DNA from: Puniceicoccales bacterium
GTDB lineage: Bacteria > Verrucomicrobiota > Verrucomicrobiia > Opitutales > JAIRLM01
Assembly (NCBI GenBank): GCA_031290195.1
Contig: JAITOA010000017.1
Span: forward strand, 1 to 35,564
Direction of reading: 5' to 3'
Length of the DNA stretch: 35,564 bases
The notes beneath the pieces are model-generated. The model searched no databases and was not told where the DNA came from. It saw only the letters and a program-made list of their open reading frames with translations. Made by a program: the position numbers and the translations under genes. Below, piece by piece: positions 18,459 through 35,564 of the stretch. Numbering within the stretch: the stretch's first letter is position 1; every line of letters begins with the position of its first letter.

Positions 18459-21011
18459 TTATAAGAGTTCGCCTGTAGTGTTTTGACTGTCATTTCCACC
18501 ATCTCCTGGTTTGCCAATATCAGTTTCTTCACTATCAACGACGCTGTTGAAGTCTGTCAGATCTTCAGACCCTACGCCGACTGAAAATTGCAGTTCCCCT
18601 TTTTCATCAGGAACGGAATCGGACGAGTCTCCATCTCCCCGCGATGATACTGCATTTGCTATGGCCATGCCTAGAGTTCCAAAACCAAAAGTAAATATTC
18701 CGAATAAAATTGGATGTGCCTCCGCAAATTTCCCGATCTTTCCTATGAGTCCAAGCGTATGAGTTTCCGTTTTTGTATCATCTAATTTTTTTGTGCTTGA
18801 ACTATTAGCATCTTCTACATTTTTAGGTTCTAAAACAGCGGTTGTCTGCGTTGCATTGGCCGTCTTTTCGTTCTCGGATTGTGATATGTTATCTTCATAG
18901 AGAGTTTTATCACCAATATCATCTCCATCGCCATCATCCTCTGCATCAGGCAGGGTTAAATATTCAATTTTAACGTTTGGACAGGGTACAAGTGAAAAAA
19001 TCAACTGAGATTTATATGAACTGTCTGTCGCTCCACCATAGTAGATAAGGGAAGTGCCAGGAGTATCTGCAAGTGTTTTTTGAATTGTTTTGGCATCCTT
19101 AGTACTATCAATATTGAGTTCAATCCATTGACCGTCTTTTAACTGATATAAATCACCACGCTTAGCGTTCGATGGAGGCGGAGGAAGTTCGCCTGTTGCA
19201 GGGGCTGGTGATTGTGCGCTCGTAGCATCACTTGCTGGTTTTCCTGGGGCAGAGGGATTTTGTCGTGGTGGTGGCATTCCAGGGTCTGGACCTGCTGGCG
19301 CATTGTTTGTTGATGGCCGAAATGCTTTGAAGCGAGTTGGATCATCATCTGGAGCTCCTTCAGGAGCCGGTGTTTGTGCCGCATCTGCATCGGCTGATGT
19401 TGGAGACTGAAAGGTGACCTTAATGTTTGCAGCTTTCGCAGCGTCTATTAATTTTGAAGCTTCAGGGTTACTGCGTACATCAGCCTCAGGACCATCATAG
19501 CATAATTCTGTTAGTCCTGAAAAAGTTTCAGGATTATTCAACATGATAGCTAATATCCGATCATTCATTTTCGTACGCGCACCATTAGATATAAGATGCA
19601 ACTTTTTGGCGTTAAAACCTGACTGAGTTTGATGCGAATTGCTTGGGGCCGTTTGCGCTTTAGGGGTTGATGATTGTGCGCTCGTAGCATCACTTGCTGG
19701 TTTTCCTGAGGCAGATGGATTTTGTCGTGGTGGTGGCATTCCAAGGTCTGAACCTGCTGACGCATTGTTTGTTGATGGCCGAAATGCTTTGAAGCGAGTT
19801 GGATCATTATCTGGAAGCGGTGCTTCTTTCCCTCCAGGAGCCGATGTTTGTGCCGCATCTGCATCGGCTGATGCCGGCGAACTGAAGGTGACATTAACGC
19901 CTGCAGTTTTCGCATCGTCTATGAATTTTGAAACTTTAGGGTTACTGCGTATATCAGCCTCAGGACCCTCATAATTGATTTCTGTCATTCCTGAAAAAGG
20001 GTTAGACCCATTCAATGCGAGCCCTAACGCCGAATCGTTCATTTGTATACGCTCACCATCGGATGTAAAATGCAACTTTGTGGCGTTAAAACCTGACTGA
20101 GTTTGCTGTGAATTCGCAGGAGTTTCTCCTTTTGCTGTCCGGGAAGATTTACCTCTTGGCGAGGAGGTACGCTGTGTTTGGAGATTCACCCTATCTGGGT
20201 TATTTTCTTGATCAACAGGGGGATCTTCCGGGAACGGTCTTACTTCTTTGTCTTCGGTTCCCTGGAAAATAGGAATACTCATTTTTTCGCCAGCCGATAG
20301 AATTTTCTCGACTTCTGGATTGGCGGATTCTCTACTGCCGCAGTAGACAAAGCCGGACAATCCATCATCGCTCTTTTGTGCATCAATATTGGTAGTTGGG
20401 TCTCTGCTGAAGTATTGTAACGCCGTACCTTTTAGCTCTTTATATTCACCGCCTTCTGTTATGTAGTAGAGGCAACCATGCTGAGCGTTCGATGGGAGCA
20501 GAGGGAGTTCGCCTGATGCAGGGGTTGATGATTGTGCGCTCGTAGCATCACTTGCTGGTTTTCCTGAGGCAGATGGATTTTGTCGTGGTGGTGGCATTCC
20601 TAAGCGTGGATTCGTTGACGGATTTCCTCCTCGTGGCACAATACATGCTCCAAAGTTCCCTGGAGTCATGTTTGACTGCATCTGAACGGGGATTGATTGT
20701 CTATTAGGAGGCTGAAGTATAGGAAGCTGATGAATAACAGTTTGCTGGCCAAGCTGTATAACTTGCTGGCCAGTCGGAGTAGACGTAGGTTTAGTATGAG
20801 TACCGAGCTGACTGTTGGGTCCACTATCCGTAGGGTCTTTAGGTTGTGATTTAGCAGCCTCTTCTGTTGGGTCGACGGCGCCTGCTGTGCCTCCATCTCC
20901 GGCAACTGCAGTTGGATTCGGTTGAGCAGCTTGATCCTTTTGGTTTGCCGCCGGAGGAGGGCATGGGGAACCTGGAGTTAGGGAAAAGCCACCAGGACCA
21001 CCAACACTCAT
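18459..21011 (-). CDS. Large modular repeat protein, Pro/Ser/Ala-rich
   Basis: This 850-residue protein has no recognised family. Residues 1-137 are Pro/Gln/Thr-rich. A linker (GMPPPRQNPSASGKPASDAT, then SAQS) occurs three times, at about residues 138-164, 424-450 and 578-604. A module of about 75 residues (SNAxxGxLY, then Y-x-G near the end) occurs at 173-246 and 613-683. A second module (QTQSGFNAxKLH, EGPEADxRSNP, VxVTF) occurs at 303-376 and 461-534. The order is linker-A-B-linker-B-linker-A. Residues about 686-750 are acidic and Asn/Thr-rich. Residues about 754-788 hold one or two hydrophobic stretches (HPILFGIFTFGFGTLGMAIA), and the tail is acidic. There is no signal peptide. The modules show beta-alpha patterning with leucine-rich-repeat-like phrasing (GLTELCYDGPEA), but no family is claimed. 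Confidence 0.8.
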   Translation of the reverse strand: MSVGGPGGFSLTPGSPCPPPAANQKDQAAQPNPTAVAGDGGTAGAVDPTEEAAKSQPKDPTDSGPNSQLGTHTKPTSTPTGQQVIQLGQQTVIHQLPILQPPNRQSIPVQMQSNMTPGNFGACIVPRGGNPSTNPRLGMPPPRQNPSASGKPASDATSAQSSTPASGELPLLPSNAQHGCLYYITEGGEYKELKGTALQYFSRDPTTNIDAQKSDDGLSGFVYCGSRESANPEVEKILSAGEKMSIPIFQGTEDKEVRPFPEDPPVDQENNPDRVNLQTQRTSSPRGKSSRTAKGETPANSQQTQSGFNATKLHFTSDGERIQMNDSALGLALNGSNPFSGMTEINYEGPEADIRSNPKVSKFIDDAKTAGVNVTFSSPASADADAAQTSAPGGKEAPLPDNDPTRFKAFRPSTNNASAGSDLGMPPPRQNPSASGKPASDATSAQSSTPKAQTAPSNSHQTQSGFNAKKLHLISNGARTKMNDRILAIMLNNPETFSGLTELCYDGPEADVRSNPEASKLIDAAKAANIKVTFQSPTSADADAAQTPAPEGAPDDDPTRFKAFRPSTNNAPAGPDPGMPPPRQNPSAPGKPASDATSAQSPAPATGELPPPPSNAKRGDLYQLKDGQWIELNIDSTKDAKTIQKTLADTPGTSLIYYGGATDSSYKSQLIFSLVPCPNVKIEYLTLPDAEDDGDGDDIGDKTLYEDNISQSENEKTANATQTTAVLEPKNVEDANSSSTKKLDDTKTETHTLGLIGKIGKFAEAHPILFGIFTFGFGTLGMAIANAVSSRGDGDSSDSVPDEKGELQFSVGVGSEDLTDFNSVVDSEETDIGKPGDGGNDSQNTTGELL
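19200..20105 (-). repeat. In-frame duplication inside the modular repeat gene
   Basis: Two adjacent blocks, about 19662-20105 and 19200-19631, each encode one copy of the QTQSGFN module followed by a DDPTRFKAFRPSTNNA segment and the GMPPPRQNP linker (about 148 and 144 residues). They are obviously homologous at nucleotide level, for example the near-identical stretch over 19200-19350 and 19662-19812. A third linker copy lies at 20520-20600. This indicates tandem duplication by recombination and a locus likely to vary in copy number. Confidence 0.85.
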
Positions 21012-28840: not shown

Positions 28841-31800
28841 TCAATCGTCAGATGCTTCCCCATTTAATTTTTTCTTTTTGACGGAATACCAAGCAAAAAG
28901 AATGCCCCCCGTGATACCGACCAGGACTGCGGGTGCAAAGAGCATGGCAGCGATTTGCCACACGAGGAGGCCGGCCAGTGCCATGGGAATGAGGCCGCAG
29001 GCAAAGAATAGGATAGCGACAATGGCGCCGACGAGGGCAAGTGCGCCGGCAACGATCCCAACGACGACGCAGACCGTTTTTAGAGAAGAAAGATTTCCAG
29101 TAGTAGTAGATGAGTCAGTTGTTGGTGGAACGTCCTGAGTCAGAGGATTAGCGCTTTGCGGACCATCATTTGCATTCCCCTGGAGTACTTGTTCCACCAT
29201 TGGCGCTGCAATTACTTCTGCTTTCTCAAGTCCATAGGAATTGAACATAAAATCCGAGAAAGAATCGTTTACTTTAGTGGGGTTACTGCTACGTTCTTTC
29301 ACAACCAGGTCCTTCAGCCAATTTCCTCCGAACGTATCCTTGGGGAATGTATTCAGCAGTTTCTGGGAAAGCTCAGCAGTCAAATTTTCAGAGCAACCAC
29401 TGGAGCAAATGGTTCCGAATCTTTTCTGACATTGCTGCACACAAAAAGCGTTTTGCAAAACCGCATCTCCTGTGGTGGATTGAGAATTCATTAGTGAAGC
29501 AAAAACATCTTGATTAATTGTGCTAAAAAGATCTTCATTATCATCTACTAGAGAGGTAAGGATGGTCAATGGGAAGTGCTCTTGAAGATTTTCTCGAGCC
29601 GTGAAGATTTTACTCAGTATGTACTGAGGGGCTGGTGATTTTTCACAAAGTCTAGAAAGCGAATCTTCATCCAGCAGGGAATAGTCACCGTCTTGGAATT
29701 GGTTAATTTGTTGTTCAGTCAGTTTGGCGATTTCATCGACGGATCCACCTCTTAGAAAATATTTTACTGCGCCATTTGTGCAGTGTGCGTTATCGCTGAA
29801 GTGTCCGGCCGTAAGATTTCCGATGATCCTAGGTCCGACGTCTGTATCACTAAATAAATCGGAGGGAATGTCGTAAATTTGTGCGCAGTCCATTCGTTTC
29901 AGAAAAGCAGGATTATCTGCGAATGCACCGGGCTGGAGAGTAGCTGCATCAATTCTTTTGATGATTCCAACTACAACGTTGCTATCATTAAATAGTTTCG
30001 GGGAATCATTCACCATTTGCGCTAATTCTTTGGCATCCCATAGGCTCACCGCTTTTTTTTGCGCGAGCAATGCAGAGATAATCTCGTTTTTTATTCCCTT
30101 CATCGCTTGCGCTGCTTGGGTCCAATTATCGGGGAGATTACTTGCCAGCTTGAAAAAATCCACGGAGACCATTGGAATGAGAGTGCCTAAATCTTTGTGC
30201 TCCCAGAATTTTTTGATTTGTCCCTTGGTTAGAGACTTGGAAAAGTGATTTTTGAAACTATCAACTCCCATCAAAATATAAAACTCTTTTTTGTTCTTAG
30301 CTGTCGCGTTGTTCGCGTCGAGGAACTCATCCCACGCTTCCTTGGGTGTTTGTACAATCTCCCTAATCCACCGGGCGACATCGTCCTGGCATAATGATGA
30401 ACTTCTTAGGAAATCTAAAAGTCGGTCTTTAGTTATTTTAGTAATCTTTTCTTCTGGGAAAAAATTTCTCAAATTTATCAATTGCTCACCTTGACCTATG
30501 CAGTTATCAAAAATAATTTTACAAATATCTTTACCATTGGTACATGAGGCGTCCTCCAGCGCGGAGAACCAAGCGGTAAATATTTCATAGGAGATGGACT
30601 CAAAAAGTTTCTTTCTTCTGTCTGTTTTGAGTTCACCCCAAACAAGTTGTAATTGTTTCGCGCTGAAAGCTTGTTTGACCTTAACGGGAACGTTTTTTTC
30701 TTCAAGAAACCTTACCAGTAGTCTTGGCGAACCTACCAATTCTTTGAATCTATCCACACCAATTCCTGCAATGGCGTCGGATGGAAACGCATTCACTGTA
30801 GCATCAAGCAATTTGGCAATTTGGTCAACATTACCTTTCTCCAGAAATCTTTTCGGAAGACCATTATTATATTCTGATGCATCGAACTGTCCTGCACCAA
30901 GTTGCTTTAGAGACACATCTTGGAGGTCATCTACTTGTTTCGTGCTCAGACTGTGAAGTTGTTTGCAGGACAATTTCGGCAACAGGATGGCAACGGCCTC
31001 ATTGCAGAGGCCACTGACCTTGTCGTTTGAAATTTTCGATGCAAGGGTTAAAATTTTTTGCTTCAATGCTGCTCTATTGTCTTCAGTCAAACTGGTGTCG
31101 CTGGCCAGTTTTGCAAATGCATTAATGTGGCCAATAAAATACGTGCTATTATTGTCAGTTGTTTTGTCGAATAAACTAATAACCACATCCTCTTTTGCTT
31201 TTTCTTGGATGAATGCTGAAAAATCTTTAGTTCCCCATGACTCAACTGCAGAGGAAGTCACTTGTTTATCGGTTATTGATTCTAGAATATCAAAATCTGC
31301 CTGCCTCACGAAAGAATCGACGAGAATAGGATCCGTAAAACAAGGATTTCTAAATTCATCGGCCATGACTACCGCGGGGTTGGACCGAGAGATGGTTGCA
31401 TAAAATTCTTCATAGTTTTTCTCCTCAGAAGCAGCGGAATTAAGCTTAAATGTACTGTTTTTCAAAATATCACTTCCCGGCGGGCTCACAAAGTTGTAGC
31501 CAAAAACGAAATTATACCTTTTAAGAATATTGCATGTGTATTCTTTGGTTTCATCTGCAGCACCTGGCATTAGGTCACTGAACCAGTGTGCCAATTCGTC
31601 ACTTTTGTCTTGTCTTATTATTAGTCTAATGAATGTCGCAATTTTCTTATAATCTTCAGATAGATCACCTCCCAGTGACTGCTCTAAATTTTCTAAAAGC
31701 ATATTTACGACTTCGCCATTTTTTATGACCTCAAGAAGATGAATTGCGACTTCAATTTTGACTTTAAAAATATTGCCAATATTTGCTTTGCCGGCAAGCT

Positions 31801-34800
31801 TGAGTTGAATGTTTAAAAATTTGTCATTTCCAGTGAGTTTTCCGTCAAATCTATTCGCTAAATTTAGGCATCCACTGATGTATGTTCTGCGATGCTCAGG
31901 CCTAAGGAATGTGAGCGCAAGTTTTTTTACCATGGTATTACTAGCATAATCAACATTCCCATAGGAAAGTGCTAGATTTAAAAGGTTATCGTTGTGTCTA
32001 TGACCTGCTGCACTAAACGCTTTCTCGAGAATGTCTTGAGGTATTTTTTCAAAAAAATTCTTTATCCAACTTTCATCTTCATCAAGTTTTAAAGCTTTAT
32101 CGTAGGTGCTATTTGCGGCAAGTCTTTCCAGTAACTCGTATCCTTTATGGAGTGTTGGGTTGTTCAGACTATAAAAACTTTCGCTAGTTATCGCCAATGC
32201 TCGGATGAAGCGAATGGGTCCAATAATGTCACGCTCCTTATCTCCATCTACAAAGCTATCTAAAAAACACTTTCCGTTTTCTCCCAAAATACTCTTCCCT
32301 TTGTTGAGTACATCTTCTATGTAGGTAAATGCAGCGGTAATTCTTTCTAGTAAAAGGGTATTTCCTAAAAGACTATCTTTTTTTGATGGGTCGGTCATAA
32401 TGCTTTCCGCCAATTTGCCGAGTGATACGAATGGCATTAGAAGGTCAGCAAACGCAGTAATAACATCGCCGTGACAGAATTGCACCTTTACATTTTTCAG
32501 GATTTCAGTGACAACACCCTTCTCCGCTGCACTAAAATACGATCTAAAGAAATTAATATGCTCTCTTTGAGTGAATAGTAGAGCTAGCAACTTCTCCGCT
32601 GCTTTGGCTTCTTTCGGCTCCTTTCCTTTAATGTGGGCAGCGATTGATTGCATGGTATCGTCGGGCAGCAAATTTAGAGCCTCTTTCCATTTTGGGTCTC
32701 CGCGAACAAGTTCAAGAACGGATGATGGTTTCCGTTCTCCCAGTAGTGCCAGTAGTTTTTCTCCATTTTTTCCATTCGCGAGAAACGCAACGACTTTGGG
32801 ATTCAGCAGTTGTCTGTCGGTGAATTCTGCTTTCTTCAACTGTTCGACAGTGGCAAGTTCGACGAATTGTCGCAAAAGATCGGTCTTTCCTGACCACCTC
32901 GAAATATTTTCCAGGGAAAATCTTTTATCGGAGAAAATTTGAGTCAATGCCAAATTTCCATAGTACATATTGGCAAAGGCACACTCAGATAGAGTATTAG
33001 CCAGATTAATCCGCTTATTGAGAATGTCGCTGTTTTTCGCCTCATACTGGAAATCATTTAGATTCCGTGTTTCTCTTTCAAAAACAGCTCGGTAAAGAGG
33101 CGCATCCAATTGAACGTATTTTTCACTTTCCTTTAAATGTTCAATTAGTTTAGCCCCTGGAAGTGCTTCCATAAACATGTCTCTCGCAGCTTTCCAGAGA
33201 TGCTCATTCTGTGAAAATAGCAGCTCAAACGGATTGCCGTTATCAGTAAACAATGCCAACGGGTCATCATCGTTGAATTCCTCTTGAGATCTACAAAAAC
33301 TCATCAACCCGCAGCCAGCGATGGCCTTACTGAAAAAAAATTCACTCGCCGTGAGAAGATCTAAATACTTTCCATGTCTGGAATCGGAATTTTCGACATC
33401 TTCTAGGACTTTCTTGGCTTCAATGCGACATAGTGCAGATGCTAAAAGTCCCACGAAAAAGGATTTTACATTTTTTGCAACTTTCTCGGCAGAAACATAA
33501 TCACTCCATTCGTCAGTGAGTCCTTCAAGCAACGCATCTATGTTCTCATTAATGTTACAGCCTGGTTCATTTGATAGGATAGAAGCAACTGCTGCAATGA
33601 CGCCGAGGCCTTTGCTTTCTTTTCCATAGCGATCTACAATGTTTCCCATGACTACATCATCTGTTGGTCCTCTATTCCCTTGCACGTATCCGCATGCTAC
33701 GCTGAGCAAAAGTTCTTTTGTGTCTTTGTCACCTTGGATAATTTCCCAAATGTCAAAAAATTCACCTTTTATATTAGGAAAAGTTTGAAGAAATTCCGTA
33801 AAAGTTTCTTTGTTTTCGAAGCATCCGCAAAAGGTAGTAAGTTTGGCAACCATTTCTTCGGGAATCCCGCTGAAATCTTTGAGGAAATTGAGTATGGATG
33901 CGCTGGCGCTATCTACTAATGGGGGACCTGAAGCCTCGGCTGAACTTTCCGAAGCAGGTGCAGGAGTCTTCGGCTCGGGAGCAGGTGCAGGAGTCTTCGC
34001 CTCGGCTGAACTTTCCGGAGCAGGTGCAGGAGTCTTCGCCTCGACTTTTGAAACAGGTTTATCATTCGCAGTTAACTCGTTGGCAATATTTACAAACCAA
34101 GCAAATAGATTTTCCGGGTTAATTCCAAGACTCTCGCTATAAGGATCGAAGCCATCGCGTGATATTTTCGATCCGTCATTGTCGACAGTTGAAATCAATT
34201 TGTGACCTTTGAAGTAGTCGAAGGAGTTTCTAATTAAATTTTGAGCCCCTTCTCTTTTTTGCAGAGCCTTTCTGCAGGCATGAAAATCTGCTTCGCTTGT
34301 CGTCAATAAATGCCTAAATTTTTCTTTGTCGGTCTCATTTCCTTTTCGCATCATCGCGGAAAAGATTTTTCGCAGTAGCAGTGCCGGCAAATTTCGGAGC
34401 ACGTTATCCTCCAACTTGCTCAATGCCATCAATTTTGATTCGTCATACAGCGCTCCCGGGTCAAGTAATTGTTCTAGCACGTCAGAGGAAACAACTTTTC
34501 TTAATTTTTCTTTATTTTCAGGGGATAAATAGCTTCCTGTTTTGAGTATCGGATCGTCTTCGAGTTTGGCAAGCTGACGGTCCGTATCGTCCGTAGAAGC
34601 TTCCGTCCGGAGAATGCGCGCATTGAGAGCAAAGAAACGTAGAAGAACATCCGTATCGCCGCCAATTTTTTTCAGAAGATTTCGAAAGGATTCGATACAT
34701 GGCCTAGCATTGACAACCCCCTTGGCATTTCCCTGCAGCATGTTGGCGAGAAGCATCATGTCCCCGGTGTCGGTCAAAAAATCGGAAAGTTTTTCTCTCA

Positions 34801-35564
34801 AGTACTTGATCTTTTCATTAGCGTTGCGTTTTCGTGTTTGGAATTCACTCTTTTCCGCGTCAGTATCAAAATTTACTTCATATTGAAAATCATATATCTC
34901 TTGTTCGAGTCTGAGTATATTGTCTTCGACTTCCTTAACTTTTTCCGTCGATAAAATTATTTCGCCGGTTGCCACGGAGAAAAGAGCTACCGGACAATTT
35001 TCAATACTACTCGTACAGCCGGACCTACATCCATCTATACCCCCTATTATTTTGCGAATCGGATGGCTCTCATCGAATGGGTTTGAAGTAGTCGAATTCA
35101 ATATTTCACTGGCTTCCTCTTCGGAAATAAAGATAGTTATCACCCTTCGATCGTGAAAATTGTTACTGTTTTCGTCATACCTGATTGCATATCTTGGACG
35201 TTCCCTGAGGGGACTCATTGCGATTGTGTCATGGTTAAATTGTTTGGCCAATCTCCAGGACATGCGAATGTCTGGGAATTGGTTGAAAATTTCCACATAT
35301 TCTCGACATGCGGAGCATAAATTATGTGAGAGTGCACATACATTTTCATTTTCGTAGGCAGATATGCATAACTGCTGTCCTTTTACGACTATACCATCTC
35401 CAGAGTGTGCTGCTTGAAATTCCAAAAATTCTTTATTCTGTTCATCTTCAGTCAATCGTCTTATTCCCGGGGGAATTGCGGAGAGTTGCCTGGCTTCATC
35501 CTCCTTCTGCTCGTCCTGCTCGTTATCCCTGTCCTGGGCCTGATTTTGTTCGACGTCAACGGAT
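28841..35564 (-). CDS. Giant protein with helical repeats and C-terminal paired membrane segments (5' partial)
   Basis: At least 2,240 codons. The first start-like codon in view is TTG 35455, but the frame stays open for 36 more codons to the window edge, without ATG, through a Glu/Asp/Gln-rich stretch (EQNQAQDRDNEQDEQKEDEA). The true start is therefore outside. From TTG 35455 as residue 1: Cys-rich patches near 125-150 (GGIDGCRSGCTSSIENC), a coiled-coil-like stretch at about 160-215, and a repeated TPAPAPESSAEA linker at about 472-514. A long all-helical region follows to about 2040, with repeats (FLEKGNVDQIAKLL near 1529; FLRGGSVDEIAKL near 1893) and another Cys cluster (CQKRFGTICSSGC). Two hydrophobic segments at about 2128-2190 precede KKKKLNGEASDD. 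No family recognised. The gene is visibly richer in A/T than its neighbours. A secreted or membrane-tethered helical-solenoid protein is inferred. Confidence 0.8.
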   Translation of the reverse strand, partial: SVDVEQNQAQDRDNEQDEQKEDEARQLSAIPPGIRRLTEDEQNKEFLEFQAAHSGDGIVVKGQQLCISAYENENVCALSHNLCSACREYVEIFNQFPDIRMSWRLAKQFNHDTIAMSPLRERPRYAIRYDENSNNFHDRRVITIFISEEEASEILNSTTSNPFDESHPIRKIIGGIDGCRSGCTSSIENCPVALFSVATGEIILSTEKVKEVEDNILRLEQEIYDFQYEVNFDTDAEKSEFQTRKRNANEKIKYLREKLSDFLTDTGDMMLLANMLQGNAKGVVNARPCIESFRNLLKKIGGDTDVLLRFFALNARILRTEASTDDTDRQLAKLEDDPILKTGSYLSPENKEKLRKVVSSDVLEQLLDPGALYDESKLMALSKLEDNVLRNLPALLLRKIFSAMMRKGNETDKEKFRHLLTTSEADFHACRKALQKREGAQNLIRNSFDYFKGHKLISTVDNDGSKISRDGFDPYSESLGINPENLFAWFVNIANELTANDKPVSKVEAKTPAPAPESSAEAKTPAPAPEPKTPAPASESSAEASGPPLVDSASASILNFLKDFSGIPEEMVAKLTTFCGCFENKETFTEFLQTFPNIKGEFFDIWEIIQGDKDTKELLLSVACGYVQGNRGPTDDVVMGNIVDRYGKESKGLGVIAAVASILSNEPGCNINENIDALLEGLTDEWSDYVSAEKVAKNVKSFFVGLLASALCRIEAKKVLEDVENSDSRHGKYLDLLTASEFFFSKAIAGCGLMSFCRSQEEFNDDDPLALFTDNGNPFELLFSQNEHLWKAARDMFMEALPGAKLIEHLKESEKYVQLDAPLYRAVFERETRNLNDFQYEAKNSDILNKRINLANTLSECAFANMYYGNLALTQIFSDKRFSLENISRWSGKTDLLRQFVELATVEQLKKAEFTDRQLLNPKVVAFLANGKNGEKLLALLGERKPSSVLELVRGDPKWKEALNLLPDDTMQSIAAHIKGKEPKEAKAAEKLLALLFTQREHINFFRSYFSAAEKGVVTEILKNVKVQFCHGDVITAFADLLMPFVSLGKLAESIMTDPSKKDSLLGNTLLLERITAAFTYIEDVLNKGKSILGENGKCFLDSFVDGDKERDIIGPIRFIRALAITSESFYSLNNPTLHKGYELLERLAANSTYDKALKLDEDESWIKNFFEKIPQDILEKAFSAAGHRHNDNLLNLALSYGNVDYASNTMVKKLALTFLRPEHRRTYISGCLNLANRFDGKLTGNDKFLNIQLKLAGKANIGNIFKVKIEVAIHLLEVIKNGEVVNMLLENLEQSLGGDLSEDYKKIATFIRLIIRQDKSDELAHWFSDLMPGAADETKEYTCNILKRYNFVFGYNFVSPPGSDILKNSTFKLNSAASEEKNYEEFYATISRSNPAVVMADEFRNPCFTDPILVDSFVRQADFDILESITDKQVTSSAVESWGTKDFSAFIQEKAKEDVVISLFDKTTDNNSTYFIGHINAFAKLASDTSLTEDNRAALKQKILTLASKISNDKVSGLCNEAVAILLPKLSCKQLHSLSTKQVDDLQDVSLKQLGAGQFDASEYNNGLPKRFLEKGNVDQIAKLLDATVNAFPSDAIAGIGVDRFKELVGSPRLLVRFLEEKNVPVKVKQAFSAKQLQLVWGELKTDRRKKLFESISYEIFTAWFSALEDASCTNGKDICKIIFDNCIGQGEQLINLRNFFPEEKITKITKDRLLDFLRSSSLCQDDVARWIREIVQTPKEAWDEFLDANNATAKNKKEFYILMGVDSFKNHFSKSLTKGQIKKFWEHKDLGTLIPMVSVDFFKLASNLPDNWTQAAQAMKGIKNEIISALLAQKKAVSLWDAKELAQMVNDSPKLFNDSNVVVGIIKRIDAATLQPGAFADNPAFLKRMDCAQIYDIPSDLFSDTDVGPRIIGNLTAGHFSDNAHCTNGAVKYFLRGGSVDEIAKLTEQQINQFQDGDYSLLDEDSLSRLCEKSPAPQYILSKIFTARENLQEHFPLTILTSLVDDNEDLFSTINQDVFASLMNSQSTTGDAVLQNAFCVQQCQKRFGTICSSGCSENLTAELSQKLLNTFPKDTFGGNWLKDLVVKERSSNPTKVNDSFSDFMFNSYGLEKAEVIAAPMVEQVLQGNANDGPQSANPLTQDVPPTTDSSTTTGNLSSLKTVCVVVGIVAGALALVGAIVAILFFACGLIPMALAGLLVWQIAAMLFAPAVLVGITGGILFAWYSVKKKKLNGEASDD

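What the first reader, a model, noticed from the sequence alone, without database searches (positions are those of the whole stretch)
28841..35564. Giant helical-repeat protein of at least 2,240 codons running off the window
The gene is far longer than its neighbours, more A/T-rich, and not recognised. It combines a charged N-terminus, Cys-rich patches, a TPAPAPESSAEA linker, a long helical body with degenerate repeats, and a C-terminal double membrane segment with KKKK after it. The reading frame continues upstream to the edge, so the protein is larger still. Such layout fits a membrane-tethered solenoid or host-interaction protein rather than an enzyme.
Basis: partly seen in the sequence, partly recalled or inferred. 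Interest (0 to 1): 0.6.

Follow-up and report, generated by a model that had tools for sequence, protein, structure and literature searches.

The report
Giant symbiont ATPase's membrane-anchored tail
The long unrecognised gene is the tail half of a giant protein (probably about 5,000 amino acids) from a bacterium that probably lives inside termite-gut protists; in its relatives the missing front half is an ATP-driven motor of the helicase kind (DUF3638), and no paper describing this bacterial family was found.

Summary
The reading frame is real: 2,240 codons, open to the contig end, with a Pro-rich linker and a C-terminal membrane hairpin. But its "charged N-terminus" is an internal spacer. 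In relatives the same V/E/Q-rich spacer lies about 750-1,050 residues after a Walker A motif and is followed by a domain that a profile recognises in the window protein (20.9 bits; best of 300 shuffles 6.0). The missing upstream half should therefore be a DUF3638-type SF2 ATPase. A contig-edge fragment of the same genome (C28) carries SF2 motif VI, spacer, post-spacer domain and membrane hairpin in one frame.

The genome is a reduced Opitutales MAG (Verrucomicrobiota) with at least four such giants and a type III secretion export gate. DUF3638 giants occur in 14 of 373 Opitutales genomes, only in two families of 0.7-1.0 Mb genomes, and in 97 of 234 Chlamydiota, often multicopy.

Most likely this is a membrane-tethered, host-facing ATPase with a binding solenoid. 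Identity is well supported; host-directed function is inference (about 0.55).

The parts
28841..35563 (-). 3' part of the giant gene: 2,240 codons plus stop; 5' end cut off by the contig edge
35486..35560 (-). acidic V/E/Q/N/D spacer (residues 2-26) that in relatives lies about 750-1,050 residues after Walker A
34664..35311 (-). post-spacer domain (about residues 85-300), shared with Opitutales and Chlamydiota giants
33929..34042 (-). Pro/Ala-rich linker TPAPAPE (residues 508-545)
32390..33106 (-). block (residues 820-1058) homologous to the tails of the G002 and G006 giants
   Evidence: 94.5%, E 8e-8
29684..30973 (-). helical region (residues 1531-1960) with the degenerate [LIVMF][ST]xxQ[LIV]xx[LIVF] motif
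   Evidence: model of low confidence
29393..29443 (-). Cys cluster C-x3-C-x7-C-x3-C (residues 2041-2057)
28880..29095 (-). C-terminal membrane hairpin (residues 2157-2228), 39% identical over 66 residues to that of the paralogue on G000:C48
28868..28879 (-). basic KKKK stretch after the hairpin

Best explanation
This is the C-terminal part, probably a little under half, of a giant (estimated 4,500-5,300 aa) DUF3638-type SF2 ATPase, one of at least four paralogues in a genome-reduced Opitutales symbiont. Layout inferred from relatives: long N-terminal region, SF2 ATPase core (not on this contig), acidic spacer, post-spacer domain, Pro-rich linker, about 1,500-aa helical body, membrane hairpin with basic tail. 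Inferred mechanism: the hairpin fixes the protein in a membrane (bacterial, or a host membrane after secretion), the helical body binds partner macromolecules, and ATP hydrolysis by the upstream motor remodels or translocates a bound nucleic acid or protein of the protist host. Shown: the frame; the homology of spacer, post-spacer domain and hairpin; the ATPase core in relatives; the taxonomic distribution. Inferred: that this gene's own missing half is the ATPase (about 0.93), the solenoid fold (about 0.75), host-facing action (about 0.55); the substrate is unknown.
For: Profile and BLAST links to giant ATPases. Spacer at a near-constant distance after Walker A in Opitutales and Chlamydiota relatives. 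Contig-edge fragment C28 of the same genome joins SF2 motif VI, spacer, post-spacer domain and membrane hairpin in one frame. SF2-like motifs QLMMGGGKT, DExH/D, S/TGT, DQxHCTGxD, QAxxRxR in the cores; DUF3638 matched by all 13 cores at E up to 1, best 1.5e-14; best Foldseek matches of the core are SF2/SNF2 helicases, E about 1e-3. Confined in Opitutales to two families of 0.7-1.0 Mb genomes, otherwise absent from a phylum sample of 388, widespread in Chlamydiota. SctV export gate above the curated cut-off in the same genome. [quoted passage not shown]
Against: The ATPase of this gene itself was not found in the 82%-complete assembly. Residues about 1,060-2,150 have no sequence relative found. 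Models are of low confidence (pLDDT 62 and 45). Secretion is untested, and a protein of about 5,000 aa would be extraordinarily large for type III export. The G002 and G006 giants that share its body block lack the C-terminal hairpin.
Confidence: 0.65

Rival explanations
1. Same protein, but it works inside the bacterium: a membrane-associated SF2 translocase or helicase acting on the cell's own or invading nucleic acid (defence or nucleoid function).
For: SF2 ATPases mostly act on nucleic acid; the core resembles helicases; multicopy, fast-diverging paralogues are also typical of defence genes.
Against: No PADLOC model matches the fragment or three cores. Distribution follows reduced, probably host-associated lineages: absent from the rest of Opitutales and of the Verrucomicrobiota sample, rich in Chlamydiota.
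Confidence: 0.25
2. A stand-alone giant membrane-tethered solenoid without any enzyme domain; the similarity to the ATPase tails would reflect a domain that was split off.
For: No ATPase for it in the assembly; frame open at the edge, so the start is unknown.
Against: It begins inside the spacer that in relatives joins ATPase and tail; three other contigs of the genome carry the same family, one with motif VI in frame with spacer and hairpin.
Confidence: 0.06
3. Chimeric assembly: the giant gene does not belong to the Opitutales genome.
For: GC3 0.39 against about 0.6 in neighbours.
Against: All seven genomes of the family carry giants of this kind; RmuC, tRNA and metabolic genes lie on the same contig.
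Confidence: 0.03

Closest known systems
Pfam PF12340 (DUF3638) proteins
   Same: Relatives of the window protein carry the DUF3638/SF2 core; in Opitutales 10 of 14 genomes with a match pass the Pfam cut-off.
   Different: The window holds only the part after the core; its subgroup is longer (about 5,300-5,500 aa where complete) and adds a long helical body; in this genome also a membrane hairpin.
Multicopy DUF3638 giants of Chlamydiota (for example L048, G760, G748, G789)
   Same: Order core - V/E/Q spacer - post-spacer domain; some add octad repeats and a C-terminal membrane segment.
   Different: Most Chlamydiota ones end about 230-600 residues after the spacer; the window protein runs on for about 2,200.
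Chlamydial Inc proteins (PMC3048545)
   Same: Hydrophobic hairpin in a protein of an intracellular PVC bacterium with a type III system.
   Different: Inc proteins are known as type III substrates of the inclusion membrane; here secretion is untested and the protein is far larger with a motor upstream.
Giant genes of Omnitrophota (from memory)
   Same: Very large genes in the wider PVC group.
   Different: No sequence link was looked for; here the family is DUF3638/SF2.

Membership tests
DUF3638 (PF12340) giant ATPases | DUF3638 / SF2 core in the protein itself | not testable with these tools
   contig ends before the core; core not found elsewhere in the assembly
DUF3638 (PF12340) giant ATPases | acidic V/E/Q spacer behind the core | tested here: met
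   residues 2-26
DUF3638 (PF12340) giant ATPases | post-spacer domain | tested here: met
   20.9 bits against at most 6.0 in 300 shuffles, spacer excluded; hhalign
SF2 helicase-like ATPases (relatives only) | motifs I, II, III, V and VI | tested here: met
   fold consistent but model weak
Inc-like type III substrate | hydrophobic hairpin | tested here: met
   residues 2157-2228
Inc-like type III substrate | translocation by a type III system | not testable with these tools
   only the presence of SctV is shown; the N-terminus is missing
alpha-solenoid repeat proteins | regular repeated helical units | tested here: inconclusive
   no self-match; motif enrichment; all-helical model at pLDDT 45

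The most novel reading that the evidence does not exclude
Two groups of protist-associated PVC bacteria (reduced Opitutales and Chlamydiota) each expanded a family of 3,000-5,500-aa proteins that combine a putative His-before-Cys (permuted papain-like) peptidase, an SF2 motor, a binding solenoid and, in some, a membrane hairpin, and use them as ATP-powered machines on the host cell, possibly on the host nucleus.
Probability: 0.25. Interest if true: 0.85.

Novelty: new variant of a known kind. Interest (0 to 1): 0.58.

Why it matters
Genomes under 1 Mb normally shed genes, yet this one spends at least 25 kb of reading frame on four giant ATPases or their fragments. A family that in these samples is confined to probable protist symbionts of two phyla points to a shared tool for living inside protists. 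DUF3638 has no known function in Pfam, and no paper describing these bacterial giants was found in the library.

Tried and rejected
Pfam, NCBIfam, PHROGs, PADLOC and PDB sequence searches with the fragment found nothing convincing. A genome-contig scan with the fragment found no relative. Searches for the missing front half in the same assembly failed; C28 was considered as that missing half and rejected because it has its own C-terminus. Self-BLAST found no repeats. The structure model of residues 1501-2240 was too poor to fold-search. The first core alignment had no stretch conserved enough for a collection scan. The main report on Ca. Nucleococcus is not in the library.

Full report
What was checked. 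The frame 28841-35563 on the minus strand has 2,240 codons and is open at the end of the window, which is the whole contig C13 of an 855-kb, 52-contig, 82%-complete assembly. Base shuffles never gave a frame above 171 codons, and the other five frames carry 49-196 stops. GC3 is 0.39, against 0.55-0.66 in the eight recognised neighbours measured. The Pro-rich linker, Cys clusters and a C-terminal hydrophobic hairpin followed by KKKK are all there. Repeats are not visible by BLASTP, only as enrichment of a short motif (6 against 1.1 expected).

Organism. I read these as termite-gut MAGs; that is an inference from the names and the literature, not printed in the records. PMC11257099 describes two Opitutales families, LL51 and UBA9783, with small genomes in lower termites and counts them among endosymbionts of protists, including the endonuclear Ca. 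Nucleococcus. The unpublished Nucleococcus MAG is about 1 Mb (PMC8204192). That the window genome belongs to one of these families is likely, not proven.

What it is. A weak match led to a 5,449-aa frame in G002 with VMGGGKT at 1886, DEAH at 2044 and a V/E/Q-rich spacer near 2935. The window protein begins in just such a spacer. Profile comparison aligns it collinearly with the tails of the G002 and G006 giants at residues 88-372 (81%) and 820-1058 (94.5%, E 8e-8). A profile of the region after the spacer, built from 27 Opitutales and Chlamydiota proteins with the spacer cut off, scores 20.9 bits on the window protein; the best of 300 shuffles scores 6.0. Across these relatives the spacer lies about 750-1,050 residues after Walker A. 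In the window's own genome, the contig-edge fragment C28 runs from SF2 motif VI (AIMRLRQF) through spacer, post-spacer domain and linker to a membrane hairpin; C48 has the post-spacer domain and a hairpin 39% identical over 66 residues to that of the window protein. With the complete 5,258-aa frame on C33 the genome has at least four giants, all with a membrane segment at the C-terminal end.

The core. Thirteen cores share QLMMGGGKT, DExH/D, S/TGT, DQxHCTGxD and QAxxRxR motifs, and all thirteen match DUF3638 at E up to 1, the best at 1.5e-14. AlphaFold gave pLDDT 62, and the best Foldseek hits are SF2/SNF2 helicases at E about 1e-3 with low TM-scores. So SF2 membership of the relatives rests on the motifs; the fold is only consistent with it.

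Distribution. PF12340 at E up to 1e-4 is found in 14 of 373 Opitutales genomes, all in two families and all of 0.7-1.0 Mb; in a phylum sample of 388 only in the window's genome; and in 97 of 234 Chlamydiota genomes, with up to 11 scored matches in one genome. The no-match Chlamydiota that were printed are of 1.0-1.4 Mb; 117 further ones were not printed, so a link with genome size there was not tested.

How it probably works. The genome has a type III export gate, SctV, above the curated cut-off. I infer a membrane-anchored motor with a binding body that faces the host cell, because the family follows probable protist symbionts and because the hairpin recalls chlamydial Inc proteins (PMC3048545). 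Secretion, substrate and location are untested, and export of so large a protein by a type III system would be exceptional; action inside the bacterium stays open (0.25). No known defence model matches.

Verdict. It is a longer, membrane-anchored variant of a known but uncharacterised domain family.

Noticed in passing
window 18459-21011 (-): 850-aa Pro/Ser/Thr-rich protein with three near-identical blocks (MPPPRQNPSAxGKPASDATSAQS), a membrane segment near the C-terminus and GC3 0.31; no Pfam or NCBIfam match. Looks like a secreted or effector-type protein.
   Followed up: partly
N-termini of relatives: L086, L094, L096, L103, L073, L033: Invariant W...SGH...N...G....Q..GxC pattern with His before Cys: a candidate permuted papain-like cysteine peptidase without Pfam or PDB sequence match; the Cys is Ala in G002 C16.
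   Followed up: partly
G000:C22:4234-6213 (L107): SctV type III secretion export gate, well above the NCBIfam cut-off, in a sub-megabase Opitutales genome.
   Followed up: partly
L048, L097, L102, L103: Chlamydiota giants carry clear period-8 repeats of the form [LI][ST]xxQ[VIF]xx[IL] after the spacer.
   Followed up: partly
G000 contigs C13, C28, C48: Three contigs of this assembly end inside a giant gene of the family, so such genes seem to break assemblies and are probably under-counted.
   Followed up: no
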